Assembly: GCA_031289425.1 (NCBI GenBank)
Contig: JAITPM010000043.1
Coordinates: forward strand, 1-48,791
DNA from: Fusobacteriaceae bacterium
Lineage (GTDB): Bacteria; Fusobacteriota; Fusobacteriia; Fusobacteriales; Fusobacteriaceae
Reading direction: 5' to 3'
Length of the DNA: 48,791 nucleotides
Shown here: positions 34,827 through 48,030 of the stretch, piece by piece
Numbering within the stretch: the stretch's first letter is position 1
How the letters are laid out: each line of letters starts with the position of its first letter
The notes under the pieces: model-generated
The model's database searches: none
The model's input: the letters and a program-made list of their open reading frames with translations, nothing else
Told to the model about the DNA's origin: nothing
Position numbers and translations under genes: made by a program

Positions 34827-36029
34827 TTATTCTTCCATTAGAAAATCAATTAAATTTTTGCATTTTATACCATCTTCCAAATTCTCAGAATAAACTCTAT
34901 CCAAAGTCAAGATAATTTTTTCATGATTATCTCTTATCTTACGTAAAGATTCTGTTTCTCTCTTTCTTACATTTTCATCAAGCATACTCATAGTCACCTG
35001 ATAGTATTTTATATCATTATGTTTTGTAGCTACAAAATCCACCTCTAGATCAGTTAATTTTCCTATTTTTACATCATACCCAAGTCGGACCAATTGAAAA
35101 TATACGATATTTTCTATAAGATATCCTATATTATCATTTCTGAATCCCAAAACTGAGTTTCTTATACCTGTATCCACTATATAATATTTTTCAAGAGTTT
35201 TTAATATATTTTTACCTTTTATATCATATCTTTGAGCTTTATATATTATATAAGCATTTTGGAGCATCTCAATATAATTTAATATAGTATTATGAGTAAC
35301 TTTATTTCCTTGACTGGTCAGATAATCAGCTATTTTTTTTGATGATAAGGTACTGCCGATATTATTCATAATAAATTTTAAGACCTTTTCCAGAAGTGTT
35401 GCATTTGTCATCTTGTTTTTTTCTAATATATCTTTTATAAAAACTGTGTAATAAACGCCCTTTATAGTATTTTCATAGAGATCCTCTTTATATTTGAATG
35501 GCATTATTCCTGGCATTCCACCAAATTTTATATATTGGCTGAATTTATCTTCTAAAGATAGATTTTCCTCAATAGAAAAAAATTCTAAAAATTCCTTAAA
35601 TGAAAGCGGAAACATATTTATTTCCACGTATCTTCCTGAAAGATATGTAGATAATTCGGATGAAAGTAGATAGGCATTGGAACCTGTAATGTATATATCA
35701 CAGTCAAAATCAACCATAAGTGCATTTACGCATTTTTCCCATTCTTTTACCCTTTGTATTTCATCTAGGAAAATATATGCTTTTCTGTTATTTTTTATTT
35801 TATCTGTTATTTTTTTATACATTTCTCTATAATCTTTTATTTCATCAAATTCAAATGATTCGAAATTCATATATATAAGATTAACATCTTTATCCTCTTT
35901 TAGCAGATATTCAACAAAAAATTTTAATAATGTAGATTTTCCGCATCTTCTTATCCCAGTTATTACTTTTACAAATTCTGTATCTTTGTAGTTAAGGAGT
36001 TTCTCCATATATATTTTTCTTTCCACCAT
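34827..36029 (-). CDS. AAA-family ATPase with C-terminal DUF4143 domain
   Basis: 400 residues from ATG at 36029, which lies 5 nt after AAGGTGA; an in-frame ATG nine codons upstream lacks a good site. The N-terminal AAA_14 domain has Walker A GIRRCGKST (about 25-33) and Walker B AYIFLDEIQ; a winged-helix stretch is in the middle (SSKKIADYLTSQGNKVTHNTI) and the C-terminal part is DUF4143-like, with a nuclease-fold pattern (LEVDFVATKHNDIKYYQV). These ATPases are abundant in anaerobes and their function is poorly known. It stands alone between the catabolic island and the ribosomal operon and has its own promoter. Confidence 0.9.
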   Translation of the reverse strand: MVERKIYMEKLLNYKDTEFVKVITGIRRCGKSTLLKFFVEYLLKEDKDVNLIYMNFESFEFDEIKDYREMYKKITDKIKNNRKAYIFLDEIQRVKEWEKCVNALMVDFDCDIYITGSNAYLLSSELSTYLSGRYVEINMFPLSFKEFLEFFSIEENLSLEDKFSQYIKFGGMPGIMPFKYKEDLYENTIKGVYYTVFIKDILEKNKMTNATLLEKVLKFIMNNIGSTLSSKKIADYLTSQGNKVTHNTILNYIEMLQNAYIIYKAQRYDIKGKNILKTLEKYYIVDTGIRNSVLGFRNDNIGYLIENIVYFQLVRLGYDVKIGKLTDLEVDFVATKHNDIKYYQVTMSMLDENVRKRETESLRKIRDNHEKIILTLDRVYSENLEDGIKCKNLIDFLMEE

Positions 36030-36047
36030 AATAATCACCTTAGAAAC

Positions 36048-36076
36048 AGTATACACTTTTTTTTAATAAATATCAA
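36048..36076 (-). promoter_or_regulatory. Sigma-70-type promoter of the ATPase gene
   Basis: On the reverse strand, TTGATA (36076-36071), 17 bp and TATACT (36053-36048). The predicted start near 36041 leaves a leader of only about 12 nt that begins at the Shine-Dalgarno site. The dyad array sits just upstream of the -35. Confidence 0.7.
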
Positions 36077-36080
36077 TTTT

Positions 36081-36166
36081 TTGTTAATGGATTAACAAAA
36101 TTTTATTTTTTTGAAATTTTTGTTAATCTATTAACAAAAAATTATTTTTTAACAATTTTTGTTAAT
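36081..36166. repeat. 39-bp-period array of TTGTTAAT dyads
   Basis: TTGTTAAT recurs at 36081, 36120 and 36159, exactly 39 bp apart. The first two are full palindromes, TTGTTAAT-GG-ATTAACAA (36081-36098) and TTGTTAAT-CT-ATTAACAA (36120-36137). The third is a half-site that also forms a dyad with the preceding TTAACAA (36149-36155). The 39-bp spacing and the flanking A/T tracts are conserved between units. It may be an operator array for the ATPase gene or for the ribosomal operon. Confidence 0.7.
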
Positions 36167-36313
36167 GCACATGCAAAACTTTTAAAATATTAATTTTTTT
36201 ATTCATAAAAATAATGATATAAACTTTATATGTTACAATATATAAGCTATATAAAAAATAAATGAATATTTTTATGAAAACCTCAAAAAAAGCTTTTATT
36301 TTTATGCTTTTTA

Positions 36314-36322
36314 TGATATACT
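36314..36322 (+). promoter_or_regulatory. Extended -10 promoter element before rpsJ
   Basis: TG-A-TATACT at 36314-36322 matches an extended -10. A T-rich -35 is possible about 17 bp upstream but is weak. Transcription would begin near 36329, about 47 nt before the rpsJ start. Confidence 0.5.
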
Positions 36323-36375
36323 ATCTAAGTTGATTTGTTAAAAATTAATTTTTTCAAAAAAGGAGGTGCAAAATA

Positions 36376-36687
36376 GTGACATCTGATAAAATAAGAATTT
36401 ATTTAAAAGCTTATGATCATTTTTTGTTAGATGAATCAGCCAAAAAAATAGCTGAAGTGGCTAAAAAATCTGGAGCTGACATAGCAGGACCAATGCCTTT
36501 ACCTACGAACATAAAAAAATATACTGTTTTAAGGTCAGTTCATGTAAACAAAGACTCAAGAGAACAATTCGAAATGAGAGTGCACAGAAGAATGATTGAA
36601 ATTAATAATTCTACACAAAAGACAATACCATCATTAATGGCAGTTAACTTACCAGCTGGTGTTGGAATAGAAATCAAACAAATTTAA
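36376..36687 (+). CDS. rpsJ: 30S ribosomal protein S10
   Basis: 103 residues, the normal S10 length, with [10 protein letters not shown] at the start and the conserved GPMPLPTN and [17 protein letters not shown] blocks. S10 is also NusE, a partner of NusB in antitermination. The start is GTG 36376, 7 nt after AGGAGGTG. It opens the S10-spc operon; a 178-bp gap with RNA structure separates it from rplC. Confidence 0.97.
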
Positions 36688-36757
36688 TTTGTATGACTTT
36701 TAATGAAAACATCTATTGGCAATAATTCGAAAGGATTTTAGATAGTGAATAAATCTA

Positions 36758-36833
36758 ATTATTCTTACAGAATAATACAAGTTGATGCTTTTTTTAAAAC
36801 TTGGTGTAAGAACCACCAGGCGGCGTTGTCAAC
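36758..36833 (+). ncRNA. Structured leader upstream of rplC, candidate autoregulatory RNA
   Basis: This untranslated part of the rpsJ-rplC gap folds on paper into several elements. Hairpin 1 has a perfect 8-bp stem ATTATTCT/AGAATAAT (36758-36765, 36769-36776). Hairpin 2 has CTTGGTG/CACCAGG (36800-36806, 36814-36820, one G-U pair) with loop TAAGAAC. GTTGA (36781-36785) and TCAAC (36829-36833) can close a helix around hairpin 2. The 36803-36834 stretch is strikingly G+C-rich for this genome. A ribosomal-protein leader bound by L3 or L4 is a reasonable guess. Confidence 0.5.
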
Positions 36834-36865
36834 CAATATATTATTTGATGGAGGTAAATAAAGAA

Positions 36866-37498
36866 ATGGCAGGAATTTTAGCTAAAAAAATTGGAATGAC
36901 TCAAATATTTGAAAATGGCAAGTTAATTCCAGTTACAGTTGTTGAAGCTGGGCCAAATTATATTCTACAAAAGAAAACAGTAGAAAGCGATGGATATACA
37001 GCTGTTCAATTAGGATTTGATGAAAAAAAAGAAAAAAATACTACTAAACCAATACTAGGAATTTTTAAGAAAGCTGGGGTAAAACCACAAAGATTTGTGA
37101 AAGAATTGAGAGTATCCTCAGTTGATGGGTATGAACTTGGACAAGAAATAAAAGCAGACGTTTTTAATGGTATTGAATATGTAGATGTTATAGGGACATC
37201 CAAGGGAAAAGGAACATCAGGTGTTATGAAAAGACATGGATTTAGCGGTAACAGAGCGACTCATGGAGTTTCATTAAATCATAGACTCGGTGGTTCTATT
37301 GGAATGTCTTCATTTCCTGGAAAAGTATTAAGAGGGAAAAGAATGGCAGGAAAACATGGAAATGCAACAGTTACAGTTCAAAATTTAAAAATAGTAAAGA
37401 TTGATGCTGAAAACAATGTAATTCTTTTGAAAGGGGCAGTACCTGGTTCAAAAAATGGTTATATAGTAATCCAATCAGCAGTAAAAAAAATTGGTTAG
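36866..37498 (+). CDS. rplC: 50S ribosomal protein L3
   Basis: 210 residues from ATG 36866, matching the usual L3 length of about 209. The open frame continues 28 codons upstream, but those codons cover the structured leader and lack L3 similarity. AGILAKKIGMTQIF opens the protein; RATHGVSLNHRLGGSIGMSSFPGKVLRGKRMAGKHG is the long loop that reaches the peptidyl-transferase centre. GGAGG is 11 nt before the start. Confidence 0.96.
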   Translation: MAGILAKKIGMTQIFENGKLIPVTVVEAGPNYILQKKTVESDGYTAVQLGFDEKKEKNTTKPILGIFKKAGVKPQRFVKELRVSSVDGYELGQEIKADVFNGIEYVDVIGTSKGKGTSGVMKRHGFSGNRATHGVSLNHRLGGSIGMSSFPGKVLRGKRMAGKHGNATVTVQNLKIVKIDAENNVILLKGAVPGSKNGYIVIQSAVKKIG

Positions 37499-37519: not shown

Positions 37520-38152
37520 ATGGCAGTTTTAAATATATATAACATATCTGGAGAACAAACTGGAACTGTTGATGTAAAAGATACAGTGTTCGGGATTGCT
37601 CCAAATAAAGCTGTACTACATGAAGTGCTTGTTGCCGAATTAGCAGCAGCTAGAAGCGCTACAGCTTCTACTAAATCCAGAGCAATGGTAAGAGGTGGAG
37701 GAAGAAAGCCTTTCAAACAAAAAGGTACAGGAAGAGCTAGACAAGGAACGATAAGATCGCCACTTATGGTAGGTGGAGGAGTTACTTTTGGACCTAACAA
37801 TAGAAAATATGAAAAGAAAGTAAATAAAAAAGTAAGAAAATTGGCACTTATTTCTGCACTTTCAGAAAAAGTTGCAAATAACCAAATAGTAGTGTTAGAT
37901 GGATCTCTAGAGACTCCAAAAACAAAAACAATAGTTAATTTTACTAAAAAATTAGATGCTCTTAAAAAACAACTATTTGTAGTTGATGATTTGGCAGATA
38001 ATAAAGATTATGCTCTATACATGTCAGCTAGAAATTTAGAAAATGCGGTAATATTACAACCTAGCGAACTAGGTGTCTATTGGTTATTAAAACAAGACAA
38101 AGTAATCGTTACTAAAGAAGCTCTTGCTACTTTAGAGGAGGTGCTAGGATAG
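37520..38152 (+). CDS. rplD: 50S ribosomal protein L4
   Basis: 210 residues with the basic exit-tunnel loop ([26 protein letters not shown], about residues 56-81) and the globular C-terminal half. In enterobacteria L4 also represses its own operon; whether that holds here is open, although a candidate leader lies before rplC. ATG follows GGAGG. Confidence 0.97.
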
Positions 38153-46074: not shown

Positions 46075-47454
46075 TTGACTTTAACAGAAAAATTTTTTGA
46101 TAAATTAGGAATCATTATGAAAAATCCTGAACTAAAGGAAAGAATAGCATTCACTTTGTTGATGTTTCTTGTAGCAAGAATTGGAACCTTTATTCCAGCT
46201 CCCGGAGTAGATATAGGAAGACTTGAAGCAATGTCAGAAACTAGTGATATATTGGGATATATTAATATGTTTACTGGAGGAGCTTTTAAGAGGATATCAA
46301 TATTTTCTTTGGGGATAGCACCTTATATTAATGCTTCCATCGTATTTAGCTTACTCTCTGTAATTATACCGAGAATAGAGGAAATACAAAAAGAAGGAGA
46401 ATCAGGCAGAGATAGAATAGCATCATGGACTAGATATCTGACTATAGTAATAGCAATGGTACAATCTTTTGCTACTTGTGCATGGCTGCAATCTGTTGGG
46501 TTGGTAACAGGAAGATCAGAAGTTGCGTTTTTTGTAACGACTATTATAACTCTGACAGCAGGAACAATATTTATGATGTGGGTAGGAGAACAAATTTCAA
46601 TACATGGAATTGGAAATGGAGTATCTCTTTTGATCTTCTTAAATGTCATATCTGGCGGACCAGGAAACATAGTTCAATTGATACAAGGAATGCGTCATAG
46701 CAAATTTCTGATACCAGCTATTATTGCTATAGCAATAGCAGGAACTTTGGTAGTTATGGGGATCGTAATATTTCAACATGGTCAAAGAAAAATACCTATT
46801 CATTATGTTGGGAAAGGGTATGGAAGAACAGGTGGAGTAGGAGACAAATCATATATTCCCCTAAAATTAAATAGTGCTGGAGTAATGCCAGTAATATTTG
46901 CTTCTGTTGCAATGATAGTTGTTTCAGCGTTATCTAGGGTCTTTCCTAGATTTCTAGAAATGATATTTAGAATATTTTCTGGTGCTATAGAAGCGGCATA
47001 TAAATGGAAATATGGAGCAGAAGAAATATTAGATAAGGCTGAACTTATGAATAAAATCAATGTAATAATTCAAAGATTGTTAGCAGCCAATGGTATAGGA
47101 TATATGGTTATCTTTGCTGTTATAATAGTGTTCTTTTCATTTTTCTATACAGCGATTGTCTTCGATCCAGAAAAAGTCGCAGATAACTTAAAACAAGGTG
47201 GGGGAACTATTCCCGGAATCAGACCTGGTAGTGAGACTGTGGATTACTTAGAAGGCGTTGTGACTAGAATCACATGGGGTGGTGCATTTTTCCTAGCAGC
47301 TATATCAATATTACCTGCTGCTATATTTACTGCATTAAAGCTTCCTGTGTTTTTTGGAGGAACTGGAATAATAATTGTAGTTGGAGTTGCGATAGATACT
47401 GTTCAACAAATAAATGCTCATTTAGTTATGAGAGATTATAAAGGATTTATATAA
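46075..47454 (+). CDS. secY: Protein translocase subunit SecY
   Basis: 459 residues with ten membrane helices. MFLVARIGTFIPAPGVDI is helix 1, FSLGIAPYINASI the plug region, and KIPIHYVGKGYGRTGG the loop before helix 6. GGTIPGIRPGSETVDYLEGVVTRITWGGA is strongly conserved. The start is TTG 46075 with GAGGTGA 6-7 nt upstream. It is the last gene of the operon; adk, map and infA, which often follow secY, are absent. Confidence 0.96.
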   Translation: MTLTEKFFDKLGIIMKNPELKERIAFTLLMFLVARIGTFIPAPGVDIGRLEAMSETSDILGYINMFTGGAFKRISIFSLGIAPYINASIVFSLLSVIIPRIEEIQKEGESGRDRIASWTRYLTIVIAMVQSFATCAWLQSVGLVTGRSEVAFFVTTIITLTAGTIFMMWVGEQISIHGIGNGVSLLIFLNVISGGPGNIVQLIQGMRHSKFLIPAIIAIAIAGTLVVMGIVIFQHGQRKIPIHYVGKGYGRTGGVGDKSYIPLKLNSAGVMPVIFASVAMIVVSALSRVFPRFLEMIFRIFSGAIEAAYKWKYGAEEILDKAELMNKINVIIQRLLAANGIGYMVIFAVIIVFFSFFYTAIVFDPEKVADNLKQGGGTIPGIRPGSETVDYLEGVVTRITWGGAFFLAAISILPAAIFTALKLPVFFGGTGIIIVVGVAIDTVQQINAHLVMRDYKGFI

Positions 47455-47458
47455 AAAA

Positions 47459-47478
47459 CACAACTTAGTTGTGCTTTT
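47459..47478. terminator. Bidirectional terminator after secY
   Basis: CACAAC (47459-47464), TTA and GTTGTG (47468-47473), then CTTTTT. The other strand shows TTTTTT right after the same stem, so it can also stop the reverse glycosylase transcript. Confidence 0.8.
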
Positions 47479-47500
47479 TATGTTTTAGATTTTTTTAATA

Positions 47501-47540
47501 GCCAAATAAAGGAATGAGCTATCTTATTCCTATTTTTGGC
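47501..47540. repeat. Imperfect hairpin overlapping the glycosylase stop
   Basis: GCCAAATAAAGGAAT (47501-47515) can pair with ATTCCTATTTTTGGC (47526-47540) as 6 bp, a 3-base internal loop and 6 bp. There is no T run suited to termination of the reverse transcript, so it may just protect the 3' end. Confidence 0.45.
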
Positions 47541-48030
47541 TTAAGTCATTTAATATTACTTTCCAGCTATCAAACAATTTTTCTATGGAATAAGAAGCAT
47601 TAGCCGGACTAGTAGAAGGTAATTTTATTGTTTCTTTCTTTATTTTTGTAAGACAATATTTGCAGTATAAATTATAAGCAATTCCACCATTTATAAAAAT
47701 TTTTTGTATATTGGATTTTTTTATAATTGCTTCTATATCATTTGGGATTACATTCCTTATTGTACTATCGCTGGAACCGGTTATTTCACATGAAGAAATA
47801 ACATCCCATAGAGCTACATTATGTTTTAACAACATATTTTTTTTATCATTCAATTGGACAGGAAGATTTTCTTTTAAAAGCATTGATAATAATTTCCAAA
47901 ATCTATTCTGTGGATGGTGATAAAAAAAATTGGCTTCTCTTGATTTTACAGAAGGGAAACTGCCAAGTATGAGTATTTTAGAATATTGGTTGTATATTGG
48001 TGCAATTTCATGAGTAAATTTATTTTCCAT
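47530..48030 (-). CDS. DNA-deoxyinosine (hypoxanthine) glycosylase, uracil-DNA glycosylase superfamily
   Basis: 166 residues. The motif ILGSFPSVKSREANFFYHHPQNRFWKLL (about residues 21-48) with N in PQNRFW, and the late LPSTSPANASYS, match the hypoxanthine-DNA glycosylase (family 6) branch of the uracil-DNA glycosylase superfamily. It would excise deaminated bases to start base-excision repair. The start (reverse ATG at 48030) follows GAGAGG. A mug/TDG-like specificity is the main alternative. Confidence 0.85.
   Translation of the reverse strand: MENKFTHEIAPIYNQYSKILILGSFPSVKSREANFFYHHPQNRFWKLLSMLLKENLPVQLNDKKNMLLKHNVALWDVISSCEITGSSDSTIRNVIPNDIEAIIKKSNIQKIFINGGIAYNLYCKYCLTKIKKETIKLPSTSPANASYSIEKLFDSWKVILNDLSQK

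What the first reader, a model, noticed from the sequence alone, without database searches (positions are those of the whole stretch)
36758..36865. Compact GC-rich RNA structure directly before rplC
In an operon with gaps mostly under 55 bp, the rpsJ-rplC gap is 178 bp and contains two hairpins and a closing helix, in a locally GC-rich island. Ribosomal-protein leaders commonly sit in such places and are bound by L3, L4 or others. The known E. coli L4 leader is upstream of rpsJ and looks different, so this may be a separate, phylum-specific element.
Basis: partly seen in the sequence, partly recalled or inferred. Interest (0 to 1): 0.6.

Follow-up and report, generated by a model that had tools for sequence, protein, structure and literature searches.

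The report
Phylum-wide RNA leader before rplC
Fusobacteria, and apparently no other bacteria, carry a small conserved RNA fold just ahead of the gene for ribosomal protein L3, placed so that a ribosomal protein binding it could switch off most of the big ribosomal-protein operon; the fold is well supported by comparison of 89 genomes, but the binding protein is still a guess.

Summary
The single sequence folds no better than shuffles and is not GC-rich overall, but comparison is decisive. A stem (P1), an asymmetric internal loop (CAA / CAAUA) and a second stem (P2) precede rplC in 89 of 90 Fusobacteriota genomes whose gap could be read (five families). Stems carry compensatory changes, the apical loop is free in length, and 15 alignment columns are invariant. 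A covariance model finds exactly one copy in each of 88 of 98 genomes, at rplC. A pattern scan of about 85,000 prokaryote genomes found no rplC-linked copy outside the phylum. It is not a coding extension and matches no Rfam family. The conserved 3' strand ends 0, 3 or 8 nt before the GGAGG of rplC. Best reading: a new ribosomal-protein leader in mid-operon, where a product of the operon (L4 slightly ahead of L3) binds the internal loop and blocks 30S loading on rplC, leaving rpsJ free. Structure, position and distribution are shown; ligand and repression are inferred. I found no imitation of 23S rRNA and no earlier description in the papers I could read (supplements not readable).

The parts
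36769..36845 (+). whole conserved core of the element (covariance model R1)
   Evidence: 57.6 bits, the only hit in the window and in the genome
36771..36777 (+). P1, 5' strand (AAUAAUA)
   Evidence: 96.9% of cells paired over 41 sequences, 3 of 7 pairs with changes on both sides
36778..36780 (+). internal loop, 5' side (CAA); its middle A is invariant
   Evidence: alignment A2
36781..36786 (+). P2, 5' strand (GUUGAU)
   Evidence: 99.2% of cells paired; the innermost pair is C-G, U-A, G-C or U-G in different genomes and changed at least 10 times on the L3 tree
36787..36827 (+). apical domain, variable in length across the phylum; in Fusobacteriaceae it holds a near-invariant GAACCACGAGG, here GAACCACCAGG at 36810-36820 (hairpin 36800-36806 / 36814-36820)
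36828..36833 (+). P2, 3' strand (GUCAAC)
36834..36838 (+). internal loop, 3' side (CAAUA), nearly invariant
36839..36845 (+). P1, 3' strand (UAUUAUU)
36764..36770 (+). CUUACAG linker, conserved in Fusobacteriaceae only; its CUU can pair with GAG of the Shine-Dalgarno sequence
   Evidence: three pairs possible in 40 of 40 distinct Fusobacteriaceae sequences, but almost without variation
36850..36854 (+). Shine-Dalgarno sequence GGAGG of rplC
   Evidence: AUAUAU-to-GGAGG spacing is exactly 8, 3 or 0 nt in the 89 genomes, by family
36866..37498 (+). rplC (ribosomal protein L3), first gene behind the element
37520..38152 (+). rplD (ribosomal protein L4), candidate ligand
   Evidence: ORF; tblastn with it
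36376..36687 (+). rpsJ (S10), upstream of the element and so outside its direct reach

Best explanation
This is a cis-acting ribosomal-protein leader placed inside the S10 operon, between rpsJ and rplC. The mRNA folds into P1, a conserved asymmetric internal loop, and P2. When a ribosomal protein made from the downstream genes is in excess over rRNA, it binds the internal loop and clamps the stem shut next to or over the Shine-Dalgarno sequence. The 30S subunit then cannot load on rplC, and translation of rplC and, by coupling, of rplD, rplW, rplB and the rest falls. rpsJ, upstream, is left uncontrolled by this element. Most likely ligand: L4 (about 40%), then L3 (about 30%), then another rRNA-binding product of the operon (about 30%). 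Shown: structure, conservation, covariation, position, phylum restriction. Inferred: protein binding, identity of the ligand, translational block, coupling.
For: Present in 89 of 90 readable rpsJ-rplC gaps in five families of the phylum; one copy per genome, always at rplC. Stems kept by compensatory changes, unpaired positions fixed. The conserved 3' strand ends 0, 3 or 8 nt before GGAGG, the usual place for a translational operator. No terminator-like site in the region, which argues against attenuation. Precedent: L4 regulates the S10 operon in E. coli, and S8 binds inside the spc operon at an internal cistron (PMC10931766).
Against: No binding or expression data. The predicted fold alone does not hide the Shine-Dalgarno sequence in Leptotrichiaceae (mean 0.69 unpaired, more than in shuffles), so the block must depend on a ligand. 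No imitation of 23S rRNA was found. The nearest gene is often not the ligand (PMC7247131).
Confidence: 0.68

Rival explanations
1. The element is a structured RNA but serves something other than r-protein feedback: a fixed translation-initiation or standby site, an mRNA processing/stability site that separates rpsJ from the rest, or a binding site for a non-ribosomal factor.
For: No ligand is proven. In Leptotrichiaceae the Shine-Dalgarno sequence is more open than in shuffles, which would suit a stem that keeps the start site accessible. The element sits exactly at the border between rpsJ and rplC.
Against: Nearly invariant unpaired letters point to specific recognition rather than to a generic stem; leaders at r-protein genes usually bind r-proteins (PMC7247131).
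Confidence: 0.24
2. A DNA-level element, such as an internal promoter or operator for rplC.
For: Strong primary-sequence conservation. One genome (L089) has TTGACA-17-TATAAT in the gap upstream of the motif.
Against: Compensatory changes across two strands at loop distances from 11 to 129 nt; the promoter scan finds nothing over the motif in this window; in Leptotrichiaceae the motif starts at or even inside the rpsJ stop codon region, with no room for a promoter.
Confidence: 0.05
3. Coding sequence: an N-terminal extension of L3 (TTG at 36782, in frame) or a small upstream ORF.
For: In this window the rplC frame is open back to a TTG at 36782.
Against: The frame is open through the motif in only 18 of 89 genomes, and the motif stands in all three frames relative to rplC with loop lengths of every remainder mod 3. 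A GGAGG precedes the L3 start in all 89.
Confidence: 0.01
4. Transcription attenuation: the ligand favours termination before rplC, as L4 partly does in E. coli.
For: Fusobacteriaceae carry a run of U in the apical domain; L4 uses termination as well as translation in E. coli (PMC10931766).
Against: No terminator-like site in the region; the U run is absent in Leptotrichiaceae.
Confidence: 0.08

Closest known systems
E. coli S10-operon (L4) leader
   Same: Controls, or here would control, the S10 operon; L4 is a candidate ligand.
   Different: The E. coli leader is a long 5' UTR before rpsJ and acts on transcription as well as translation (PMC10931766). This one is between rpsJ and rplC, has a core of only about 40-80 nt, shows no terminator-like site, and its L4 binding is untested. 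The E. coli site is not even general in gamma-proteobacteria (PMC10931766).
E. coli spc-operon (S8) site
   Same: Mid-operon translational operator; the repressor does not bind before the first cistron (PMC10931766).
   Different: Different gene (rplC here) and no known imitation of rRNA here.
Fusobacteriales S4 leader and archaeal (Archaeoglobi) L4 leader of Eckert and Weinberg 2020
   Same: The first is a predicted r-leader in the same bacterial order; the second is a predicted leader of an operon starting with rplC, rplD (PMC7247131).
   Different: The S4 leader precedes rpsM-rpsK-rpsD, not rplC; the L4 leader is archaeal and rated borderline. Table 1 of that paper lists no L3 ligand and no Fusobacteria leader at rplC.
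rpsJ motif (RLC-47-1) of Peptostreptococcaceae
   Same: Predicted leader in the S10 operon region (PMC11109978).
   Different: Lies before rpsJ and is confined to three genera of Peptostreptococcaceae.

Membership tests
ribosomal-protein leader (r-leader), as a kind | conserved RNA structure consistently upstream of r-protein genes | tested here: met
   89 of 90 gaps; one site per genome, at rplC
ribosomal-protein leader (r-leader), as a kind | covariation supporting the structure | tested here: met
   5 of 13 pairs with changes on both sides, 97.9% of cells paired, slid controls at most 54%; RNAalifold agrees; repeated changes on the L3 tree
ribosomal-protein leader (r-leader), as a kind | direct binding of an operon-encoded r-protein | not testable with these tools
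   no binding assay or RNA-protein modelling on hand
ribosomal-protein leader (r-leader), as a kind | represses expression when the r-protein is in excess | not testable with these tools
   needs a reporter experiment
ribosomal-protein leader (r-leader), as a kind | imitation of the rRNA site (frequent, not required) | tested here: not met
   covariance model against six fusobacterial 23S loci: best hits chance-level and outside 23S or on the other strand; joint two-strand match no better than shuffles
E. coli-type S10 (L4) leader | located in the 5' UTR upstream of rpsJ | tested here: not met
   element is at 36769-36845, after rpsJ; no second model hit in the genome
E. coli-type S10 (L4) leader | intrinsic terminator in the leader | tested here: not met
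   0 terminator-like sites in 36050-36900
E. coli-type S10 (L4) leader | bound by L4 | not testable with these tools
   needs purified protein
any RNA family of Rfam 15 | match to the family's covariance model | tested here: not met
   none at gathering score in the window; permissive search gives one weak hit (E 0.67) inside rplC; none in eight relatives

The most novel reading that the evidence does not exclude
The ligand is L3 (uL3). That would make this the first leader known to me that is controlled by L3, one of the proteins needed for the first step of 50S assembly, in a phylum-wide arrangement that uncouples synthesis of S10 (NusE) from the rest of the operon.
Probability: 0.28. Interest if true: 0.65.

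Novelty: new member of a known kind. Interest (0 to 1): 0.5.

Why it matters
The S10 operon is among the largest ribosomal-protein operons, and outside enterobacteria and their kin its feedback control is largely unknown. A compact, phylum-wide element gives a defined candidate site for that control in Fusobacteriota, a deep branch with little RNA biology. It adds one more independent solution to the same regulatory problem, and the ligand question (L4 again, or L3 for the first time) can be settled by one binding experiment. Its position would also let cells make S10/NusE, which has a second job in transcription, independently of the other proteins of the operon.

Tried and rejected
Single-sequence folding: not significant. 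Rfam: nothing. N-terminal extension: rejected. Alternative pairing register with a 2x2 loop: one of its pairs holds in only 3 of 41 sequences, so the 3x5 loop register is preferred. Imitation of 23S rRNA: I first noticed that ACCAAUA of the 3' strand also occurs at the 3' end of some fusobacterial 23S rRNAs (domain VI, where L3 binds as I recall). Longest-match lengths were at the level of shuffles, the rRNA word varies between species while the leader word hardly does, and the covariance-model and two-strand tests were negative (one search was flawed because three loci were in the wrong orientation); dropped. A resemblance to the L4 region of domain I, compared by eye, was also dropped. A switch between P1 and the upstream hairpin: its pairs are not consistently kept. 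Hits outside Fusobacteriota in the pattern scan: none lies next to rplC, rpsJ or rplD. The 23S of the window's own genome was not found in its assembly; a first multi-genome request failed and was repeated with fewer genomes.

Full report
What is in the sequence. The window is one whole contig of a Fusobacteriota genome (phylum from the record titles of relatives). rpsJ ends at 36687 and rplC begins at 36866, so the gap is 178 bp; other gaps in the cluster are almost all 2-55 bp. The reported segment 36758-36865 is 31% GC, below the 33% of the gene cluster; only a 20-nt stretch at 36816-36835 reaches 65%. Folded alone, neither the segment nor the gap is more stable than shuffles (z = -0.74 and -0.29). 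From this window alone the finding would not have held.

Comparison changes that. L3 homologues were located in 90 of 98 genomes of the phylum and the rpsJ-rplC gaps read in all 90. In 89 of them the gap ends with the same motif: UAAUACAAGUUG...loop...CAACCAAUAUAU, followed by GGAGG and the rplC start. They span five families: f1 with 55 genomes, f4 with 31, and f2, f3 and f6 with one each. Record titles of contigs with the same lengths identify f1 as Fusobacteriaceae (for example an Ilyobacter) and f4 as Leptotrichiaceae (Leptotrichia, Streptobacillus, Oceanivirga). The one exception, G061 (family f5), has a 9-bp gap and no motif, and what looks like tuf upstream of rpsJ. The distance between the two conserved strands runs from 11 to 129 nt: two fixed strands with a free loop, which is what an RNA stem looks like.

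Structure. On an alignment of 41 distinct sequences, two stems are separated by a 3x5 internal loop. 97.9% of cells are paired, against at most 54% when the partner strand is slid. Five of 13 pairs show changes on both sides, and no shuffle out of 500 reached the observed pairing or covariation score. RNAalifold, given only the alignment, returns exactly this structure. A 2x2-loop register is worse. On a tree of the L3 proteins the innermost P2 pair (C-G, U-A, G-C, U-G) changed at least 10 times, and in about four of five well-supported independent contrasts both strands changed together; five contrasts are too few for a formal P below 0.05. The outer P1 pairs change on both sides too, but in only about two events each. 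The internal loop and its flanks hold most of the 15 invariant columns.

Uniqueness and spread. A covariance model of the motif finds one site in the window (36769-36845, 57.6 bits), one in the genome and exactly one in each of 88 of 98 phylum genomes, with coordinates directly upstream of the L3 match. Of the ten without a hit, eight gave no L3 match (mostly incomplete assemblies), one (G086) has the motif by eye with a 129-nt loop, and one (G061) lacks it. An exact-pattern scan of the 84,980-species collection gave 25 stretches; only those from Fusobacteriota have rpsJ, rplC and rplD beside the motif. That pattern covers loops up to about 34 nt and strict spellings, so a diverged relative elsewhere cannot be excluded.

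Lineage differences. In Leptotrichiaceae and the deep single genomes the element is often nearly the whole gap. In Fusobacteriaceae it gains an upstream stretch of low conservation, a conserved CUUACAG linker and an apical domain with a near-invariant GAACCACGAGG whose hairpin partner varies.

Position and mechanism. The conserved AUAUAU ends exactly 0, 3 or 8 nt before GGAGG, depending on family, and GGAGG stands at an ordinary distance from the rplC start. In Fusobacteriaceae CUU of the linker can pair with GAG of the Shine-Dalgarno sequence in all 40 distinct sequences, though these letters hardly vary. Predicted openness of the Shine-Dalgarno sequence is slightly lower than in shuffles in Fusobacteriaceae but higher in Leptotrichiaceae. 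So the common mechanism cannot be simple masking by the fold; a bound ligand that stabilises the stem and stands in the way of the 30S subunit fits all families. There is no terminator-like site in the region and no promoter-like site over the motif in this window. This is why I favour translational repression of rplC and coupled genes by an operon-encoded r-protein. Precedents are L4 for the S10 operon and S8 for an internal site in the spc operon (PMC10931766).

Which protein. L4 is favoured because it is the proven regulator of this operon in E. coli and a predicted ligand of an archaeal leader. [quoted passage not shown] I looked for imitation of 23S rRNA in six fusobacterial genomes by covariance model and by joint matching of both strands and found none above chance. 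The ligand therefore stays open.

What is known. No Rfam 15 family matches. The survey of 20 new leaders lists an S4 leader for Fusobacteriales but nothing at rplC in this phylum and no L3 ligand (PMC7247131). Other screens I could read do not mention it in the main text (PMC11109978, PMC8632094, PMC7160235, PMC8040213), nor does a Fusobacterium nucleatum transcriptome paper (PMC11005410). Supplementary files were not readable and most subscription papers are not held, so an unnamed listing elsewhere is possible.

Verdict. A real, structured, phylum-wide RNA element (my confidence about 0.95 for that part), most likely a new ribosomal-protein leader (0.68), ligand unproven.

Noticed in passing
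36758-36776: A perfect 8-bp hairpin (AUUAUUCU-UAC-AGAAUAAU) in this genome uses the same strand as P1; it is only partly conserved in relatives, so a switch between the two is possible here but not a general feature.
   Followed up: yes
36810-36820 and relatives: In Fusobacteriaceae the apical domain keeps GAACCACGAGG almost letter for letter although its hairpin partner strand varies, which suggests a second, family-specific recognition site.
   Followed up: partly
L089 (G097), rpsJ-rplC gap: A consensus sigma-70 promoter (TTGACA, 17 nt, TATAAT) lies inside the gap just upstream of the motif in this deep-branching genome, so the element may there also sit in a true 5' UTR.
   Followed up: no
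L090 (G061): The only genome read without the element; the rpsJ-rplC gap is 9 bp and what looks like tuf lies directly upstream of rpsJ. It may be a secondary loss in a small genome or a lineage that branched off before the element arose.
   Followed up: no
36050-36375: rpsJ is the first gene of the cluster here: a long AT-rich stretch (11-21% GC) separates it from an opposite-strand ATPase-like gene (34827-36056).
   Followed up: no
46075-48030: The cluster ends with secY, followed by an opposite-strand gene that looks like a DNA glycosylase; rpsM-rpsK-rpsD, where the published Fusobacteriales S4 leader sits, are not in this window.
   Followed up: no
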